This document shows, piece after piece, positions 1,724 to 21,942 of a stretch of 43,402 nt of DNA. Source of the DNA: a virus. The notes below the pieces were generated by a model. That model saw nothing but the letters and a program-made list of their open reading frames with translations. It searched no databases and had not been told where the DNA came from. The position numbers and the translations under genes are program-made. Positions within the stretch are counted from its first letter, which is position 1. Each line of letters begins with the position of its first letter. The DNA lies in the IMG/VR virus record IMGVR_UViG_3300003322_000444, positions 1 to 43,402 of that record. One strand, written 5' to 3'.

Positions 1724-3864
1724 GACTTCAGCGCCATGATCGGGCAGGCGTAGCGGACCGGGCAGATGCCGCACGGCTTGCCGTACTCCGTGCCGGGGTT
1801 CGCTGGGTAGACCGAGCCCAGGTGCATGGCGGCCACCTGGCCGGCCCGGTAGTCGATCTCCGCGTCGGAGATGAGCTGTTTCGGGATGATGGGATCGGTC
1901 GTCTTACCGGAGCGCGAGTCGTAGTACGCCGCGCTGACCTCGATCTGGTCGCCGGTCATGCGCCGTACCGCGCGCGCGTAGTAGGCGAGCTGGAAGTCGT
2001 CCTTCGGCAGATCCTTGCCGCTCTTGGGGTCGATGACCTGGAGCTCGATACCTTCCGGTATGACGCGCATCCAGACCTGATCGATACGCCCCTCGGCGTA
2101 GACGTCGGTGAATCGGCTGTAGGGGATCGGGTACTGGAACTCGAACTCCAGCATCGGCCCCTTCGGCGTCTGGAAGATCTGCCATCCGGCGGCGTGCCGC
2201 TCGTTGGACCACACGATGTAGTCCTGGAGCATGCCCGGCGCGTTCTCGCGCCACCAGTCCGGCGTCTCGATCCCCTTGTTCGACGTACGCCAGAGCTCCT
2301 GTGGCAAGTCCGGCCCGGCGGCCTGTTCAGCTTCGGCGATGGCCAGATCAAAGTACGTGTCAAACAGGTAGCGGCACGAGCGGATGTCCCTGGTCATGAT
2401 GGCTGTCACCGCGGTAGGCGAGGCTACCCCGTCGAGGATGCCCACTTGGGCGAGCCGCGTACGCTCGATCATTTCGTAGCAGGAGTGCAGTGCCGTACCG
2501 GCGACGTTGGCCCAGGTCGGAACCTGCGGAACCTGATCCACGTCGATCAGCCGGAGCTGGAGCCCGCACGCCTCGCCCGTCTTGATGGCGCTCTGGTGGA
2601 TGCCCGCGGGCGGCTGGTTGCCGTATCCGTCCCATGGGACGGGGTTCGTCGGAACCGGCGTCCACCACGTGGCCTTGGGCGGATCGGGCGCACTGAACGG
2701 GTCGGCTGAGGTGATCTCCATGGTCCCGTCCTTCATAATCTCCACGCGGTCCGATAGCCCCTTCTCGATGACGTCGCCATGCTCAACTAAAACGGCCAGG
2801 CTGAATGCGTCGGAGTGCGCCTCGCGCGGATACCCGCACTGCGAGCGCATGGTGATGACGCCCGTGTCGGAACTGGGATCTTCAGAGGTGGTCTCGTCGC
2901 TCCAGCGCTCGCAGTAGTCCCGGGTGCCGACGAACGCGTGATCTCGCTGAATCGTGGTCACGATAGCCCGCTGGACGGCCAGGTCGTCGTACGCGCCCGC
3001 GGCACGCAGTTCCGCACGGGGCGACGGCTCCGCCTCGCGCTGGACCTCCGATCCGCCGCAGCAGCGCAGCGACTGGCAGTACTCCTTGACCGTCGTGCGG
3101 CAGAAGCAGGGATCATCACCGTGCCGCGGGCAGTCTTGTTGTGGACCGTCCCCCGCTGGCGGGGGCGTGCACGTGCACCCGTTCAGGAAGAAGTCCGAAC
3201 CGGCGGTAACGATCCCCGTGGGCAGGTCGAACCCCTTCGCGATCGTGTCCGCCAAGACGGCGTCCAGCTCGGCCGTGCTCGACGCTTGGTCGGCGCCCGC
3301 GTAGATGCAACCCGGAAGATGGATGCCGTTGTCGCACCCGATCGGCTGGCACGGGTTCAGCGGCACGTCATTGTCGTTGGGGGCTGGCAGATCCTCGGGG
3401 CGCCGGTTGTCGGCCCAGCGCATCCCGTTCCCTTCGTGCGCGGTGCCCAGCGGGTGCGGCGCCAGGGCGCACTTCGCACCGGAGATCGTCTCCGGCCAGC
3501 CGCACGGTGGGGCGTCCGGGTTGTCCATCTGGTTGAGTTGCCGGTGATTCTCGCGGACCTGAGCGTCGGTGGGCCAGCTCTTCACCGCAGCGGGGGCGGC
3601 AGCCGGGGCGTCGCTCGCGCCGTCCTTGCGCAGGCTGACGGCGATGCCGGCCAGTTCGGACGCGGCGTACTGGAGCTTCTCGTCCGTACCTTTCGCGCCC
3701 CGCCGGTTGGCCGCCACCAGCTCGGCGCCGCGGTTGCGCCACTGGGTGGCGATCTCCTCCAGGACGTCGGCGAGCGCTTCCGCGCCGCCGGGCTCCAGCC
3801 TGGCCATCAGCAGCGCGTTGCGCGCCCGGTTGGCCAACTGGATCTGATCGGGTAGTGCACTCAT
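1720..3864 (-). CDS. Cas4/RecB-like PD-(D/E)XK nuclease with a large cysteine-rich N-terminal extension (714 aa)
   Basis: The C-terminal part (about residues 430-714) has PD-(D/E)XK nuclease features: a GTALHSCYE helix (G-x-x-x-H-x-x-x-E type), GRIDQVW, then VIDPKSGK with the catalytic D...K, and a Q-x-x-x-Y helix (QLAYYARAV). It ends with CGICPVRYACP, which with an earlier Cys could hold an Fe-S cluster as in Cas4/AddB-type exonucleases. Such phage nucleases process DNA ends during recombination and replication. The first ~400 residues are not recognised; they contain several Cys clusters (CTCTPP, CPRHGDDPCFCR, CQSLRCC) suggesting bound zinc. Typical phage Cas4 proteins are under half this length. 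The ATG at 3864 overlaps the upstream stop. Confidence 0.75.
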   Translation of the reverse strand: MSALPDQIQLANRARNALLMARLEPGGAEALADVLEEIATQWRNRGAELVAANRRGAKGTDEKLQYAASELAGIAVSLRKDGASDAPAAAPAAVKSWPTDAQVRENHRQLNQMDNPDAPPCGWPETISGAKCALAPHPLGTAHEGNGMRWADNRRPEDLPAPNDNDVPLNPCQPIGCDNGIHLPGCIYAGADQASSTAELDAVLADTIAKGFDLPTGIVTAGSDFFLNGCTCTPPPAGDGPQQDCPRHGDDPCFCRTTVKEYCQSLRCCGGSEVQREAEPSPRAELRAAGAYDDLAVQRAIVTTIQRDHAFVGTRDYCERWSDETTSEDPSSDTGVITMRSQCGYPREAHSDAFSLAVLVEHGDVIEKGLSDRVEIMKDGTMEITSADPFSAPDPPKATWWTPVPTNPVPWDGYGNQPPAGIHQSAIKTGEACGLQLRLIDVDQVPQVPTWANVAGTALHSCYEMIERTRLAQVGILDGVASPTAVTAIMTRDIRSCRYLFDTYFDLAIAEAEQAAGPDLPQELWRTSNKGIETPDWWRENAPGMLQDYIVWSNERHAAGWQIFQTPKGPMLEFEFQYPIPYSRFTDVYAEGRIDQVWMRVIPEGIELQVIDPKSGKDLPKDDFQLAYYARAVRRMTGDQIEVSAAYYDSRSGKTTDPIIPKQLISDAEIDYRAGQVAAMHLGSVYPANPGTEYGKPCGICPVRYACPIMALKS

Positions 3865-4142
3865 GGCAGTAGTCCCTTGCGTCGTAGCAGGTCGATGATC
3901 GGATATATGTCGGACGGCGGGATGCCGAGCAGCTCGGCGATCTCACGCTCTCGGTACGCCTGGGAGCGTAGAGCGATGATGCGGGACGCCAGCTCGACCG
4001 GCGACAGTTCGGTGCCCAGGCTGTAGAGCGCGAGCGTGCCCCGGCGCCGGTTGCGGTGGTAGCAGCGCGTACACAGCCCCCACGCCAGGTGCATGCGGAA
4101 GTTGTCGCAGTCCGCGCACCATCGGCGGGGCGTGGGCGCCAT
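3861..4142 (-). CDS. Zinc-finger plus helix-turn-helix DNA-binding protein (93 aa)
   Basis: The N-terminal part has paired CxxC motifs (WCADC at residues 8-12 and CTRC about 12 residues later), a small treble-clef or ribbon zinc site. The C-terminal half (AYREREIAELLGIPPSDIYP, then IIDLLRRKGLLP) is a typical helix-turn-helix of MerR/resolvase or sigma-region-4 type. It is likely a transcriptional regulator or DNA-targeting factor encoded directly ahead of the nuclease, with a four-base overlap. Partner and operator are unknown; it could also be a transcript-modulating factor. Confidence 0.75.
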   Translation of the reverse strand: MAPTPRRWCADCDNFRMHLAWGLCTRCYHRNRRRGTLALYSLGTELSPVELASRIIALRSQAYREREIAELLGIPPSDIYPIIDLLRRKGLLP

Positions 4143-4145
4143 GAC

Positions 4146-4235
4146 TCAGCGGCGGGCCGTGCCGCGCAGGAAGTACAGGACCCCGGCGACGAGTGCGGCA
4201 CCCAGGAATAAGACGGCGATCACGGATTCAGGCAT
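4146..4235 (-). CDS. Tiny single-span membrane protein (29 aa)
   Basis: The frame runs ATG (4235) to TGA (4148-4146) between two other small genes, leaving only three bases on each side. The product begins MPESVIAVLFLGAALVAG and has one membrane segment (about residues 4-22) followed by a basic tail (RGTARR), consistent with an N-out/C-in orientation. No family is recognised. Support is the tight operon packing and the clear hydrophobic profile. Confidence 0.6.
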   Translation of the reverse strand: MPESVIAVLFLGAALVAGVLYFLRGTARR

Positions 4236-16175: not shown

Positions 16176-16799
16176 ATGAGTCTGCCGTTCCTTACCGTCC
16201 AGCAGCCCGCCAGCCAGGGCAACGACTTCGCGCCCTACTGCCTGTGCTCGCTGATCGAACCCTTGGTGGATGTGAACCTGGACGGCGTGCAGTGGTGGAT
16301 GCCCGACATCCTCCCCGGCGGCACGGTGCTGGGCGGCATCTTCGACTACGCCGGTGACGCGACCCCGGGTGCGCTCCTGCGATCGGCCACCTTCACCGGC
16401 GCCGTGGCGCACCAGTACAACGTCGCTTCGTTCGCACCGCTCCTGCGCGCCATCGGGCAGCGGTTCTACGCGGCCATCTGGACGCCCGACCGCTACGTCT
16501 ACACGTCGGCTGGGGGCTGGGCGCCGGTCAACAACGGCCACCTGCTCCTGCCGGCCGACGACCAGGTGACGCCCCGGCGCAACGGCCGGTTCATCTTCAT
16601 GCCGCCCGGCCTGGCGTACCCGACCGGCTCGGGTGGCGGCCTGTACTACGTCGGCGTGACGTACACCCTGGCCGTTCCGGTGGTCGAGTCGGGCGTCTGG
16701 ACGATCGGTACGCAAGAGCAGCGGTTCGAGGTCGGCGGTCCAGTGGATCGGTTCGTCATCGGCCCGGCTGAGCAGCGCTGGCAGATCGGCGGCCAGTGA
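16176..16799 (+). CDS. DUF4082-like beta-sandwich protein (207 aa)
   Basis: The segment VQWWMPDILPGGTVLGGIFD, then GALLRSATFTG, then FAPLLRAIGQRFYAAIWTPD matches the strand pattern of DUF4082 domains (G-x-R-F-Y...sLW...f...g..Y.v.y...). This is a non-catalytic beta sandwich, probably a virion decoration or fibre component. Its position between terS and terL is unusual. The C-terminal part has repeats of the type W-x-I-G, R-F-x-V-G-G (QRFEVGGPVDRFVIGPAEQR). Confidence 0.6.
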   Translation: MSLPFLTVQQPASQGNDFAPYCLCSLIEPLVDVNLDGVQWWMPDILPGGTVLGGIFDYAGDATPGALLRSATFTGAVAHQYNVASFAPLLRAIGQRFYAAIWTPDRYVYTSAGGWAPVNNGHLLLPADDQVTPRRNGRFIFMPPGLAYPTGSGGGLYYVGVTYTLAVPVVESGVWTIGTQEQRFEVGGPVDRFVIGPAEQRWQIGGQ

Positions 16800-18388
16800 T
16801 GAGTCTCGATCCCGGCTATGACTTGTTCGACATGGTGGCCGAGCTGTGCGAGACGAACGGACTCGGCACGCCGGTGGACGGCGATGCGCTGATCTTCCCC
16901 ACGCCGGGCGACCTGGCCAAGTACATTGACCCGCGCACGGTGCAGACTCCCGCGCTGGACATCCTGGATGCGGCGCTCATCGACGCGGCAAACGGCGTGT
17001 CGCCCCGGCTGATCTTCACGATGCCGCCGCAAGAGGGTAAGTCCCAGCGGGTCAGTCGCACCTTTCCATTGTGGCTACTCTTGCGCAACTCCGACCTGCG
17101 CATCGGCGTCGTCTCCTACGCCCAGACGCTCGCGGTCACGGCGAGCACGCACGTACGCCGGGACATCGAGAGCCATCCAGAGCTGAGGCTGCGCATCGGC
17201 CCCGGCCAGGCGGCCAAGAGTGAATGGACGCTGGACGGCGTGCAGATCGGCCCGTCGATGATCGCTCGTGGCGTCGGGGGCGGGCTCACCGGCAAACCCC
17301 TGGATGTGTTGATCATCGACGACCCTTTCGCCGACCGGAAGCAAGCCGACAGCGAACTGATCAGGCAAAACGTCTGGGACTGGTGGACCGAGGTCGGATC
17401 AGCGCGCCTGGGACCGAACGCCATCGTGGTCGTGATCATGACGCGGTGGCATGAGGACGACCTGGCCGGCCGAATGCTCAAGGACGCGCCGGACATCTGG
17501 CGGCATATCAACATCCCGGCCCGTGCCGACCATGATCCGAACAAAGGTGAGGCGGATATTCTCGGCCGGCGCCCCGGCGAGTACATGGTCTCGGCGCGTG
17601 GCCGTTCACAGCAGGACTGGGAGCAGCGCGAGCGCACGGCCGGGTCGCGCTCCTGGACGGCGCTCTATCAGGGGCGGCCGAGTCCGGGCGACGGCGGCGT
17701 GTTCCGGCGTGCCTGGTGGCGTTTCTATAGCGACAACCGGTACATCGAGCGCGCCAACGGGTCGATGTACATCCCGGGCCAGGTGACCGTGGAGCTGCAC
17801 GTGGACTGCGCGTTCAAGGACATCGAGACGTCGGACTATGTGGCCATGGGTGTCTGGGTGCGTCGCGGCCCGCGGGTCTGGCTGGCCGACCTCGTCAATG
17901 AGCACCTGGACGTCATCGAGACGGTGCAAGAGATCTTGACGCTGCGGGCGAAGTGGCCGCAGATCAACGCGGTCGTGGTCGAGGACAAGGCCAACGGCCC
18001 GGCCGTCATCCAGATCTTGCGACGCAAGGTGCCCGGCGTCATCGAGTACACACCGCTGGACAGCAAGCAGGGACGGGCGTTCGCGGTGACGCCGCTCATC
18101 GAGGCCGGCGATGTCGAGTTGCCCGATCCCCAAATCTTGCCCAAGATCAGCCAACTTTTGGAGCAGTGCGCGAGCTTCCCGGTCGGCGCCCACGACGACC
18201 TGGTGGACCAGATGACGCAGGCGCTCGATCGCATGCTGCTCAAGCCGGCCGGTGACCCGTTCATGCGAGCGTTGCTGGCCGAGCAGGGCGCGGAGATCCT
18301 ATTGGACCGCCCGCAAGGCGCGGCCTGGTCGCCACAGGGCGGCTTTGCCGACAACGCACCGGAGCACATCGGCAACCCGTTCGCGTAG
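16799..18388 (+). CDS. terL: Terminase large subunit (529 aa)
   Basis: The ATPase domain has a Walker A variant MPPQEGKSQR, Walker B VLIIDDPF and the following MTRWHEDDLAGRML. The nuclease domain has VDCAFKDIETSDYVAM, VVEDKANGPAV and GAHDDLVDQMTQA, the RNase H-like acidic triad of packaging nucleases. It drives DNA into the prohead and cuts the concatemer. Length is normal. ATG 16799 overlaps the upstream stop (TGATG). Confidence 0.93.
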   Translation: MSLDPGYDLFDMVAELCETNGLGTPVDGDALIFPTPGDLAKYIDPRTVQTPALDILDAALIDAANGVSPRLIFTMPPQEGKSQRVSRTFPLWLLLRNSDLRIGVVSYAQTLAVTASTHVRRDIESHPELRLRIGPGQAAKSEWTLDGVQIGPSMIARGVGGGLTGKPLDVLIIDDPFADRKQADSELIRQNVWDWWTEVGSARLGPNAIVVVIMTRWHEDDLAGRMLKDAPDIWRHINIPARADHDPNKGEADILGRRPGEYMVSARGRSQQDWEQRERTAGSRSWTALYQGRPSPGDGGVFRRAWWRFYSDNRYIERANGSMYIPGQVTVELHVDCAFKDIETSDYVAMGVWVRRGPRVWLADLVNEHLDVIETVQEILTLRAKWPQINAVVVEDKANGPAVIQILRRKVPGVIEYTPLDSKQGRAFAVTPLIEAGDVELPDPQILPKISQLLEQCASFPVGAHDDLVDQMTQALDRMLLKPAGDPFMRALLAEQGAEILLDRPQGAAWSPQGGFADNAPEHIGNPFA

Positions 18389-18397
18389 GCTTCGGCC

Positions 18398-18631
18398 ATG
18401 ACCGATACCTCATCCCGCCATCCCGCCGTGCTTCAGTACTTCTCGTTCGACCACCTACCGGAGGGCATCCTTCGCAACACCTCTGAGGGGTGCGCGATGC
18501 TCGCATTCGGCATGGCCCACAGCCTCCCCGAGTCACCGGAACTGACCGCGGGGCTGCGCAAGCTGCTGGAGGCGAAGGACTGTTTCGTCCGCGCCGCGCT
18601 GCCGCTCGTGAAGGCACCGGACACCCCGTAG
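18398..18631 (+). CDS. Acb2/Tad1-like cyclic-nucleotide sponge candidate (77 aa)
   Basis: The sequence (HPAVLQYFSFDHLPEGILRN, then ELTAGLRKLLEAKDCFVRAA) matches the small helical-hairpin family I know as Acb2/Tad1 hairpin domain proteins, widespread in actinophages. Characterised members sequester cyclic di- or trinucleotides or gcADPR and so block CBASS or Thoeris immunity. Conserved points seen here are HLP, a small-residue-rich first helix, and LRKLLEAKD in the second. The gene starts ten bases after terL, unusual for an anti-defence gene, which are commonly early. Ligand specificity cannot be read from the sequence. Confidence 0.7.
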   Translation: MTDTSSRHPAVLQYFSFDHLPEGILRNTSEGCAMLAFGMAHSLPESPELTAGLRKLLEAKDCFVRAALPLVKAPDTP

Positions 18632-18661: not shown

Positions 18662-18695
18662 GAGCGCTCGACCTACCGCCCTTGGTCGAGCGCTC
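18662..18695. terminator. 12-bp perfect hairpin between the sponge gene and the portal gene
   Basis: GAGCGCTCGACC (18662-18673) pairs with GGTCGAGCGCTC (18684-18695) around a ten-base loop. There is no U-run, so it is an attenuator, processing site or intrinsic terminator of the kind seen in G+C-rich genomes. It separates packaging genes from the portal gene. Confidence 0.6.
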
Positions 18696-18753: not shown

Positions 18754-21700
18754 GTGGGGCGATCCAGGGCGCGCGCGCGAGCTCAGCGCGGAGTGATCAC
18801 CAAGGCCGTTCCGAGCATCGAGCGGGGTAACCGAACCTCCGTCCCGCAGAAGACTTTCGGACTGCTCGACGCCCTCCAGATGGCCACCGGCCGCACGCCG
18901 TACGGCGATCTCCAGCTCTTCCCCCGCGACCCGCGCGACGACAACGCCTTCGGGCCGAGCGCCCCCCTGCCGAGCGAGCCCCTAGACCGCGCCGCGCCCG
19001 GAAGCGGCCAGCCGGCGCCGCGCGTGTGGCAATACCCGGTGAGCTGGAACCTACCCGGCAACGGCAACCGCGAGGTCCCCTGGCAGGTGTTGCGCGCGTC
19101 GGCCGGCGCGGTGGACGTCATCCGCCAGTGCATCGAGGTCCGCAAGCGCGGCATGCGCGGACTGAAGTGGCGTTGGGGCGTCAGCTCGCAGGCGATTCAA
19201 GACGCGTACGCCAGCGACCCGCGGGCGGGCAAGGAAGACGCCGAGCAGACGCTCCGCGAGAAGTACGCGGGGGAGATCGCCCGGCTGACCGAGTTCTGGG
19301 AGCGCCCCTGGAAGTCCAACGGCTGGAAGTTCGGCCAGTGGATCAACGCCGTCATGGAAGAAATCATCGTTCTCGACGCGCTGCCGATCTACCCGCGGCG
19401 CGCCCTGGCCGGCAACGTGATGGACCTGGAGGTCCTGGACGGCTCGACGATCAAGCCACTCCTGGATGTGCAGGGCCGACGCCCGCTGGCGCCGTTCGCG
19501 GCGTTCCAGCAGATCCTGTACGGCTTCCCGCGCGGCGAGTATCGCGCAGTCGGTGCCGAAGCGGACGAGCTGGGCAACATCGTCAACCTGCCGGGCGGTC
19601 TGTCGTCGGCCGAGCTGGTGTACCACGTCGAGAACACGCGTACGCACTCGCCGTACGGTCTCTCGCAGGTGGAGAACGCGCTGATCAGTGCGCGACTTTA
19701 CCTGAAGCGCCAGGGCTGGATGTTGGCCGAGTACGAGGACGGCTCGACGCCGCTCACGTGGATCGGACCGCCGGAGAATCCCGCGCTGGCCGAGAAGTTC
19801 ACTCCCACCGTGCGCCGGGAGTGGGAGGACGGGCTCAACGCCGAACTGAGCGGTAACACGCGGCGCCGGGCGCGGGCCAAGGTGCTGCCGCCCGGCTGGA
19901 CCGCCACCCAGACGCAGAGCGTGGACGAGCGGTACAAGCCGGAGTACGACATTCACTTGATCAAGCTCGTGTGCGGTCACCTCGGCGTACCGATCAGCGA
20001 ATTGGGCTACTCCGAGGCCAAGGGACTGGGCACGAGCGGTTATCACGAGGGCATGGCCAACGTGGCGGCCAAGGTGGGGGACCGGCCCGATGTCGCCGTA
20101 CTCACTGAATTGATCTTGGATCTGTCGCGCGACCTGCTCGACGCGCCCCGGGAGCTGGAGTTCCAGTTCATCGACCCGGCGGCCGACGATGCCGCCACGC
20201 TCAACACGGTCCAAGACCTTCAGTTCAAGCGCGGCGCCATCACTCTGAACGACCAGCGGCGCGCCATCGGCATGGCGCTGTACGACTTCCCCGAGGCGGA
20301 CATGCCCATGATCGTGGGGGCCGGTCCACAGGGTGTGATCTTCCTGGAGGGGCTGCACGACCAGGTGGCCGCCCAGAATCAGATGGCGCTCCTTACTCAG
20401 TCGTCCACGATCCAGCAGGGGGCCGATGAGGCGAGCGCGGCGGCCGACGAGGCGCAAGCCGCGCCGGAAGAGGGTGACGAGAGCGGCGATGCGGCGCCGG
20501 CCGATGACGTCGAGAAGGCGATCATGCCGGACGAGGCAGAACGCCGGCGTGCGGAGATCCAAGCGTTCCGGCGCTGGCACCGTCGCGTCGGCCCCGGCAC
20601 GCCGGCGCGGCCGTTCGCGTTCAAGTACTGCGAACCGGCGGATATGGACTATCTGGCCGAGCTGCCGAAGCTGGCCACGTTCGACGGCTGGATCTGGGTC
20701 GCCGATGAGGACCTGGAGCTGTTCCTGGAGGCCGACCTCATCAAGGGTGACGGGTGGCGCAAGTTGGCTCGCGACTCGCGCGGCCGATGGATGAAACTCT
20801 CCTCCATCAGCGATGTTGCGCTGGGTCCGGACAAGCCGGCCAAGGACGTCCTGGACATGTTGCGCCGTGAGGCGCGCCGCCGAACGCACGGGCGCAAGCA
20901 TCCTGCGACCGCTGAGGGTGCGCACGCCGCAGTCCGGGACCTCGTCGCCGATGAGGCGAGAGGTGACGATTTCGTCAAGCTTCACGCGGTCAGGGGCCGC
21001 ATGACGGGAACGCATGCCGAACAGACCGCCGCGCTCACGGCGGCTCATGAGCGCGGCCTGATCACGATGGAGCCCTACCCGAACCGGAACAGCCTGTCGT
21101 CCGAGGACCATGCGGCCGCGGTCCCGCTGGGCGGCGAACCTCGGCACATGGCGGCACAGGTTCCGCTCGATGTCCAGCGCGGTACGCCGGAGAGCCCCGC
21201 CGGTCGCGCGTTCGGCACACTGAGCGAGAACGCGGGCTGGGCGGACGACAAGCCGCGTGCGTCGCGCGTATCGAGGGCGCCGAAGGCGGCCGAGGTGCGG
21301 CCCAGCGCGGCTGAGCATCTGTCGGCCATCCGGGGCATGAGCAGCCGTGAGGAGATCCGCAGCTACCTGGAGGGCATCAAGAGCAAGGCGGAACTGCGGT
21401 CGATCATCGACGAGCGCGACAAGGGCGCCGAGTTTCCGCTGAAGCACTCGGCTACGGCCGCCCAGATCAGGGCCGACCTGTTGCGACAGGAAGGCGTTCG
21501 GTTGGACTCTGACGCGCTGCGCAACAGCCGGGCCAGTGACTCCTCGTACCGCTCGCTGGCCGACCATCCGGCCGCGGTCGTGCGCGGGTCGGGCTCCGGA
21601 CTCACCGATACCGCCGTCGAGCACGGCAGCACCGGCGGCGCGCTGGCGGCCGGGAGTCGGGAAGGCGTACGCGAGGCGGCGCGCGCCCTGGGCGGCACGC

Positions 21701-21942
21701 CGTACCAGGACGTCTCGGCGGCCGACGTGCTCGGCCGGATCCCCGGAACCAAGAAACAGCGGGTGGCTTTGCTGGAGCGGATGTTCCAGGACCGGGACAT
21801 CAACCTGACCGCGGAGGACACGGTCGATCCGGCCGAGCTGATGGCCAGGGTCCGCTCTGGAGATCCGAGCGTGCGGTTGCGGATCTCTGAGTACCGGCCG
21901 GCGAGCGACAAGAGCGTAGAGGCTGACCAGGGAAAAGCGTGA
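18754..21942 (+). CDS. Portal protein with a long C-terminal extension (1062 aa)
   Basis: Residues ~90-560 fit actinophage portals: WQVLRASAGAVDVIRQCIEV, KRGMRGLKWRWG, the long helix-rich middle with YHVENTRTHSPYGLSQVENA, and the C-terminal QAFRRWHRRVGPG region. The portal ring forms the DNA channel. Usual portals have 450-600 residues; here about 400 further residues follow RDSRGRWMKL (673-682), with no recognised domain but alternating charged helices. That motif recurs in other structural proteins of this phage. GTG at 18754 has a strong GGAGGTGG site. Confidence 0.85.
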   Translation: MGRSRARARAQRGVITKAVPSIERGNRTSVPQKTFGLLDALQMATGRTPYGDLQLFPRDPRDDNAFGPSAPLPSEPLDRAAPGSGQPAPRVWQYPVSWNLPGNGNREVPWQVLRASAGAVDVIRQCIEVRKRGMRGLKWRWGVSSQAIQDAYASDPRAGKEDAEQTLREKYAGEIARLTEFWERPWKSNGWKFGQWINAVMEEIIVLDALPIYPRRALAGNVMDLEVLDGSTIKPLLDVQGRRPLAPFAAFQQILYGFPRGEYRAVGAEADELGNIVNLPGGLSSAELVYHVENTRTHSPYGLSQVENALISARLYLKRQGWMLAEYEDGSTPLTWIGPPENPALAEKFTPTVRREWEDGLNAELSGNTRRRARAKVLPPGWTATQTQSVDERYKPEYDIHLIKLVCGHLGVPISELGYSEAKGLGTSGYHEGMANVAAKVGDRPDVAVLTELILDLSRDLLDAPRELEFQFIDPAADDAATLNTVQDLQFKRGAITLNDQRRAIGMALYDFPEADMPMIVGAGPQGVIFLEGLHDQVAAQNQMALLTQSSTIQQGADEASAAADEAQAAPEEGDESGDAAPADDVEKAIMPDEAERRRAEIQAFRRWHRRVGPGTPARPFAFKYCEPADMDYLAELPKLATFDGWIWVADEDLELFLEADLIKGDGWRKLARDSRGRWMKLSSISDVALGPDKPAKDVLDMLRREARRRTHGRKHPATAEGAHAAVRDLVADEARGDDFVKLHAVRGRMTGTHAEQTAALTAAHERGLITMEPYPNRNSLSSEDHAAAVPLGGEPRHMAAQVPLDVQRGTPESPAGRAFGTLSENAGWADDKPRASRVSRAPKAAEVRPSAAEHLSAIRGMSSREEIRSYLEGIKSKAELRSIIDERDKGAEFPLKHSATAAQIRADLLRQEGVRLDSDALRNSRASDSSYRSLADHPAAVVRGSGSGLTDTAVEHGSTGGALAAGSREGVREAARALGGTPYQDVSAADVLGRIPGTKKQRVALLERMFQDRDINLTAEDTVDPAELMARVRSGDPSVRLRISEYRPASDKSVEADQGKA

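What the first reader, a model, noticed from the sequence alone, without database searches (positions are those of the whole stretch)
18398..18631. Possible cyclic-nucleotide sponge (anti-CBASS/anti-Thoeris) in the packaging operon
The 77-residue product matches the Acb2/Tad1 hairpin family as I know it (HPAV.. FDHLP, LRKLLEAKD). Characterised members soak up immune second messengers. Its place between terL and portal, expressed with late genes, is unexpected, since anti-defence proteins are commonly made early; it may have a second role, or a promoter of its own.
Basis: partly seen in the sequence, partly recalled or inferred. Interest (0 to 1): 0.78.

Follow-up and report, generated by a model that had tools for sequence, protein, structure and literature searches.

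The report
Unassigned sister family of phage nucleotide sponges
A 77-residue phage protein belongs to a very widespread, uncharacterised phage family that is a distant relative of the proteins phages use to mop up bacterial immune signal molecules, but its most conserved surface is different, so whether it binds such a signal, and which one, is unknown.

Summary
The ORF (18398-18631, +) is real. It sits 9 nt after terL and before the portal gene, and belongs to PHROG 5120/1761. Homologues occur in 341 phage records and at least 579 IMG/VR stretches, and in (pro)phages of at least eight bacterial phyla. The family idea is nevertheless right at superfamily level. The family's profile matches a bona fide PF24729 subfamily (hhalign E 5e-8 to 2e-6, score 40 against a shuffle maximum of 14). 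AlphaFold2 gives both the same layout: a short helix plus a hairpin. That PF24729 subfamily is in turn close to the solved 'Acb2 homolog 43' (9ptq) and to Tad1. Against simple membership, the columns invariant in Acb2-type proteins (R47, T54, E/Q57, M/F60-61, W62) are replaced by a different invariant set (R54-K55-E58-K60-D61-R65, H19). Placement among late structural genes is not unusual: it recurs in this family and in true PF24729 genes. Best reading: a hairpin sponge with an altered pocket and unknown ligand. Binding, hexamer formation and anti-defence activity were not tested.

The parts
18398..18631 (+). 77-aa 'HLP' family protein (PHROG 5120/1761): short N-terminal helix plus antiparallel two-helix hairpin
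18446..18460 (+). codons for residues 17-21 'FDHLP' (H19, L20 at least 99% conserved), the loop before helix 2
18536..18598 (+). codons for residues 47-67, helix 3, carrying the invariant stripe R54-K55-L56-L57-E58-A59-K60-D61-V64-R65
16796..18388 (+). terminase large subunit; its stop lies 9 nt before the HLP start codon
   Evidence: Terminase_6C 4.8e-15, Terminase_6N 1.6e-9
18662..18695 (+). perfect 12-bp inverted repeat with a 10-nt loop (strong RNA hairpin, no T run) between the HLP and portal genes; possible terminator or processing site
   Evidence: (-51.8 kcal/mol for the gap, z -2.1)
18754..21942 (+). portal protein with C-terminal extension; preceded by a GGCGGAGG ribosome-binding site
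   Evidence: (Phage_portal 6.5e-5, below cut-off)

Best explanation
The gene encodes a small helical-hairpin protein that is a distant sister of the Acb2/Tad1-hairpin sponges. It most likely assembles as an oligomer of hairpins and binds a small, chemically invariant ligand, most plausibly a nucleotide-type immune signal, through the conserved loop 'FxxHLP' and the invariant charged face of helix 3 (R54, K55, E58, K60, D61, R65). It would thereby keep a host effector from being switched on late in infection, when capsid, portal and terminase are being made. Shown: the ORF, the family, remote homology to PF24729 and the (predicted) fold. Inferred: oligomer, ligand class, anti-defence role. Unknown: which ligand; the pocket columns differ from those of characterised sponges.
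For: Profile-profile match to a bona fide PF24729 subfamily (members at 4e-14 to 2e-27 in Pfam): hhalign prob 92-95, E 6.9e-7 to 4.8e-8, score 39-40, against 100 column shuffles (max 14.1) and reversed alignments (12.3); repeated with tool alignments at E 1.8e-6 and 9.9e-8. An HMM of that subfamily scores 151 HLP members at median 13.2, best 23.7 bits, against a maximum of 6.8 in 1,510 shuffles and 1.8 reversed. PHROG 1761 is hit by P0001 (2.3e-21) and by 11 of 35 PF24729 members (best 1.2e-4). The same PF24729 subfamily hits solved 'Acb2 homolog 43' (9ptq, six chains, 2e-9) and Tad1 (0.001), and the HLP profile scores the 9ptq fragment above all 1,000 shuffles. AlphaFold2 layout H10-15/H24-42/H47-70 (pLDDT 88.5) against H4-10/H19-42/H47-69 for the PF24729 protein, as described for the Acb2 protomer in PMC10419184. 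In BFVD, the hits below the family's own members include 14 'Acb2/Tad1 hairpin domain-containing' proteins in the top 50. One relative lies next to an Acb4-family (PF13876) gene (L074) and one next to a 2H phosphoesterase gene, the superfamily of Acb1 (L025); PF13876 is the Acb4 sponge family (PMC11722364).
Against: P0001 itself does not match PF24729 and scores only 6.9 bits with the sister HMM, level with the best shuffles. The homologous stretch found by hhalign is 34 columns; the C-terminal half of helix 3 differs. Columns invariant in sponges (R47, T54, E/Q57, M/F60-61, W62) are replaced. The Foldseek PDB search gave no Acb2 or Tad1 chain, though the control with a true PF24729 protein found Vs.4 only at E 3.4. 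BFVD E-values are individually insignificant (0.34 or worse) and have no base-rate control. The two anti-CBASS-like neighbours are only 2 of about 70 loci. No binding or phenotype data exist for the family.
Confidence: 0.45

Rival explanations
1. It is a canonical Acb2/Tad1 sponge that binds cGAMP, cA3 or gcADPR.
For: Superfamily homology and the same helix layout; R65 and G52 are shared with Acb2 proper.
Against: No PF24729 hit. The HLP profile does not score Acb2 p26, Vs.4 or Tad1 fragments clearly above shuffles (1.1, -0.2, -1.9 bits). The columns conserved in characterised types are replaced. There is no N-terminal beta-sheet domain as in Tad1.
Confidence: 0.15
2. It is a hairpin adaptor that binds and modulates a highly conserved host protein, not a small molecule; the invariant charged helix-3 face is a protein interface.
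For: Extreme sequence conservation of an exposed-looking charged stripe across phages of at least eight phyla; the fold is small and the canonical ligand columns are lost.
Against: Its superfamily relatives with known function bind nucleotides (PMC10419184). No known host partner.
Confidence: 0.2
3. It is a head or assembly factor (minor capsid, scaffold or connector helper), which is why it sits among terL, portal, protease and capsid genes.
For: Neighbours include at least 6 terL and 7 portal genes among 127 neighbour proteins. In L070 it is fused in frame to a prohead protease-capsid polyprotein.
Against: The position varies widely: after the major capsid gene, between tail genes, by topoisomerase genes in ZZ1, in a non-structural arm of KayaCho, near the left end of Pupper. 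In RPP1 it (orf29) is not among the 13 virion proteins found by mass spectrometry although its neighbours gp28, gp31 and gp32 are (PMC4193335); a small protein could be missed.
Confidence: 0.15

Closest known systems
PF24729 REK-type proteins of actino- and Paenibacillus phages (PHROG 1454; e.g. Mycobacterium phage Farewell gp93)
   Same: Helix layout; turn LPxGxE at the same spacing; V28, C32, L35, A36, L43, P44, G46, E48, K55, L56, E58 and A59 line up without gaps; also found in late modules.
   Different: HLP lacks the R47, K49, T54, E57, M60, W62, N64 and R69 signature and has FxxHLP plus R54, K60, D61, R65 instead.
Acb2 (PaP2 p26, T4 Vs.4; PDB 8h2j, 7uq2)
   Same: Short N-terminal helix plus antiparallel hairpin; G52, L56, [V/I]64 and R65 pattern in helix 3.
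   Different: No significant sequence match (the hhalign pairing with Acb2 alone is weak); no KGYRDLSQEEID block; T54 and Q57 replaced.
Acb2 homolog 43 (PDB 9ptq)
   Same: The HLP profile aligns LPxGxE...KLxEA above 1,000 shuffles.
   Different: It carries the REK and EEAMFF residues that HLP lacks; I found no paper on it, so its function was not checked.
Tad1 (PDB 7uav, 8smd, 8kbg)
   Same: The C-terminal hairpin belongs to the same Pfam domain as the sister family.
   Different: Tad1 has an N-terminal beta-sheet domain (PMC12043709); HLP is all-helical and 77 aa.

Membership tests
Pfam PF24729 Acb2_Tad1_hairpin | profile match above the gathering score (27 bits) | tested here: not met
   no hit for P0001; 2 of 56 relatives at best E 0.069; positive control Vs.4 6.8e-20
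Acb2/Tad1 hairpin superfamily | statistically supported homology to accepted members | tested here: met
   hhalign E 5e-8 to 2e-6 with shuffle and reversal controls; HMM scores; shared PHROG 1761
Acb2/Tad1 hairpin superfamily | short N-terminal helix followed by two antiparallel helices | tested here: met
   AlphaFold2, pLDDT 88.5, against a PF24729 protein and the Acb2 description in PMC10419184
Acb2 (anti-CBASS 2) | conserved helix-3 columns R47, T54, E/Q57, hydrophobic 60-61 | tested here: not met
   P, R, L, K-D in HLP
Acb2 (anti-CBASS 2) | homo-hexamer | not testable with these tools
   only monomer prediction was available
Acb2 (anti-CBASS 2) | binds cyclic di- or trinucleotides and inhibits CBASS | not testable with these tools
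   needs purified protein and phage assays
Tad1 | N-terminal beta-sheet domain plus hairpin | tested here: not met
   77 aa, all helical, no strands; gcADPR binding not testable
Acb4 (PF13876) | profile match | tested here: not met
   no Pfam hit for P0001; an Acb4-family gene neighbours one relative (L074)

The most novel reading that the evidence does not exclude
The HLP family is a phage sponge family found across bacterial phyla, with a ligand pocket and ligand class unlike those of Acb2, Tad1, Tad2 or Acb4. It is carried inside late structural modules (once even fused to the capsid polyprotein) so that the sponge is made exactly when capsid-sensing defences fire.
Probability: 0.3. Interest if true: 0.82.

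Novelty: new variant of a known kind. Interest (0 to 1): 0.58.

Why it matters
Acb2 is described as relatively rare and restricted to certain phage groups (PMC11722364). This family has the same predicted fold, is abundant in the collections searched, and reaches phages of actinobacteria, proteobacteria, chloroflexi, cyanobacteria, bacteroidetes, verrucomicrobia and others, yet it is annotated only as 'hypothetical protein' and has no Pfam model. Its near-invariant charged face says it recognises something that does not change between hosts. If that is an immune nucleotide, the ligand would point to a signal, and perhaps a defence system, that phages everywhere face; a small, well-folded protein makes this directly testable.

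Tried and rejected
Pfam, NCBIfam and PDB sequence searches with P0001 alone: nothing useful. The family profile's marginal PDB hit to phage P1 tail sheath gp22 (E 0.004; identity of the entry from PMC10304247) and hits to designed four-helix proteins were set aside as helical-composition matches. Acb2-only profile comparison was insignificant and would have led to a wrong 'unrelated' verdict; the link appears only through the REK-type subfamily. The Foldseek PDB negative was discounted after the positive control also performed poorly. The 'structural protein' label on the Roseovarius phage homologue (FR682616 orf28) looked like proof of a virion role. Comparison with the sister record FR719956 and the paper shows the gp28 identified by mass spectrometry is the 386-aa gene upstream, so the label is shifted by one gene. 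A conserved downstream partner gene was looked for and not found. PF24729 was not detected in 20 cellular genomes carrying HLP; it occurs away from the HLP gene in two HLP-bearing virus contigs (G020 above the Pfam cut-off, G002 below it). The query was partly a consensus that I composed from memory; all conclusions use the natural proteins it retrieved, checked by Pfam.

Full report
Observation. A 77-codon ATG ORF lies exactly at 18398-18631 on the + strand. Codon-position GC is like that of its neighbours, it matches PHROG 5120 and 1761 at about 1e-21, and homologues are found in 341 phage records, at least 579 IMG/VR stretches and 196 genome-contig stretches from many phyla. It follows terL by 9 nt and is separated from the portal gene by 122 nt that hold a perfect 12-bp inverted repeat at 18662-18695. 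The ORF is real and its family is large. I call it the HLP family after its 'HLP' motif.

Is it Acb2/Tad1? The direct test fails: P0001 has no Pfam match, and only two of 56 relatives touch PF24729, at best E 0.069, while T4 Vs.4 scores 6.8e-20. A profile comparison with Acb2 proper is insignificant. PF24729, however, contains another large subfamily in phages of actinobacteria and Paenibacillus, with the signature LPxGREKxLAxTKLEEAMFWANAAIAR, whose members hit PF24729 at 4e-14 to 2e-27. Against that subfamily the HLP profile aligns with hhalign E 6.9e-7 (4.8e-8 after trimming), score 39-40. One hundred column shuffles reach at most 14.1 and reversed alignments 12.3. Tool alignments repeat it. 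HMM scores separate HLP members (median 13.2, best 23.7 bits) from 1,510 shuffles (max 6.8) and reversed sequences (max 1.8), although P0001 alone scores only 6.9. PHROG 1761 is hit by both groups. The two families can be laid side by side without gaps over residues 25-68; hhalign itself aligns 34 columns of this (residues 26-59).

Link to characterised sponges. The REK-type subfamily hits the solved 'Acb2 homolog 43' (9ptq, six chains) at 2e-9 and Tad1 structures at about 0.001. The HLP profile itself scores the 9ptq fragment at 10.8 bits, above all 1,000 shuffles, but not Vs.4, p26 or Tad1 clearly. I could not find a paper on 9ptq and did not verify its activity.

Fold. AlphaFold2 gives HLP helices 10-15, 24-42 and 47-70 (mean pLDDT 88.5), and the REK-type protein helices 4-10, 19-42 and 47-69 (91.1). 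[quoted passage not shown] Foldseek against viral models lists, below HLP members themselves, 14 'Acb2/Tad1 hairpin domain-containing' proteins in the top 50, each individually insignificant and without a base-rate control. Foldseek against the PDB found no Acb2 or Tad1, but a true PF24729 model found Vs.4 only at E 3.4, so that negative says little.

What differs. In the shared frame, Acb2 and REK-type proteins keep R47 (87 and 97%), T54 (88 and 91%), Q or E57 (93 and 100%), hydrophobic 60-61, and W62 in the REK type. HLP has P47, R54, L57, K60, D61 and C62, all at 78-99%, plus K55, E58 and A59 at 99-100%, and V64, R65, H19 and L20 at 97-99%. The fold is kept and the functional surface is rebuilt, and it is just as strongly conserved. 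That argues for a definite, invariant binding partner, but not for cGAMP, cA3 or gcADPR in particular.

Context. The late position is not odd. HLP genes lie after the major capsid gene (Perlina), between head genes (B1251), between tail genes (Gustav, NS-I), between a terminase-like gene and a portal gene again in L044, and among at least 6 terL and 7 portal genes in 127 neighbour proteins. True PF24729 genes show the same habit: between protease and capsid in NoodlelyBoi, between endolysin and holin in Jace, after the holin in Bing. HLP genes also occur elsewhere (ZZ1, KayaCho, Pupper), so position is not fixed by a structural job. One relative is fused in frame to the prohead protease-capsid polyprotein (L070). 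One lies next to an Acb4-family gene and one next to a 2H phosphoesterase-like gene, families known from or related to anti-CBASS proteins (PF13876 = Acb4 in PMC11722364; Acb1 as a 2H phosphoesterase is my own knowledge). These are single cases. Defences that sense late structural proteins would make a late sponge sensible: PMC12043709 describes Thoeris sensing the phage major head protein, and PMC10419184 notes that acb2-deleted phages escape CBASS by capsid mutations. This last step is inference.

A correction to a tempting clue. The Roseovarius phage record FR682616 labels its HLP homologue 'structural protein'. The paper behind it (PMC4193335) found gp28 of RPP1 in virions; in RPP1's own record FR719956 gp28 is the 386-aa gene just upstream and the HLP gene is orf29, not detected. 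The label is shifted by one gene. This counts weakly against a virion role.

Verdict. The gene is a member of a Pfam-unassigned sister family within the Acb2/Tad1 hairpin superfamily. A sponge-like function with a different ligand is the best single explanation (0.45); canonical ligand binding (0.15), a host-protein adaptor (0.2) and an assembly role (0.15) remain open. Nothing here shows binding, oligomerisation or anti-defence activity.

Noticed in passing
L070:5999-7878: An HLP domain is fused in frame to the N-terminus of a prohead protease (S78) plus capsid polyprotein, directly after the portal gene (ATGA overlap).
   Followed up: partly
L209 (FR682616.1) 3941-4204 against L391 (FR719956.1) 2774-4190: 'Structural protein' labels in FR682616 appear shifted by one gene relative to the gene identified by mass spectrometry in RPP1, so the HLP homologue is mislabelled.
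   Followed up: yes
window 18662-18695: Perfect 12-bp GC-rich inverted repeat between the HLP gene and the portal gene, without a T run; possible terminator or processing site.
   Followed up: partly
L074:277-1719: Acb4-family (PF13876) gene, HLP gene and a weak nucleoside-deoxyribosyltransferase-like (PF15891) gene in a row; looks like a small counter-defence island.
   Followed up: partly
L025:853-1540: HLP gene directly followed by a 2H phosphoesterase-like gene (PF13563, below its cut-off), the superfamily of Acb1.
   Followed up: partly
L285 and L286: Two HLP copies about 100 kb apart on one Stenomitos (cyanobacterium) contig, with the same neighbouring gene layout.
   Followed up: no
L309, L306, L308: Canonical PF24729 (REK-type) genes sit inside late modules of Microbacterium, Rhodococcus/Gordonia and Streptomyces phages, annotated only as hypothetical.
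   Followed up: partly
BFVD A0A6G6XYP8: An Ochrobactrum phage protein annotated 'Anti-TRAP domain' (122 aa) matches the HLP model, suggesting fusions to a zinc-binding domain.
   Followed up: no
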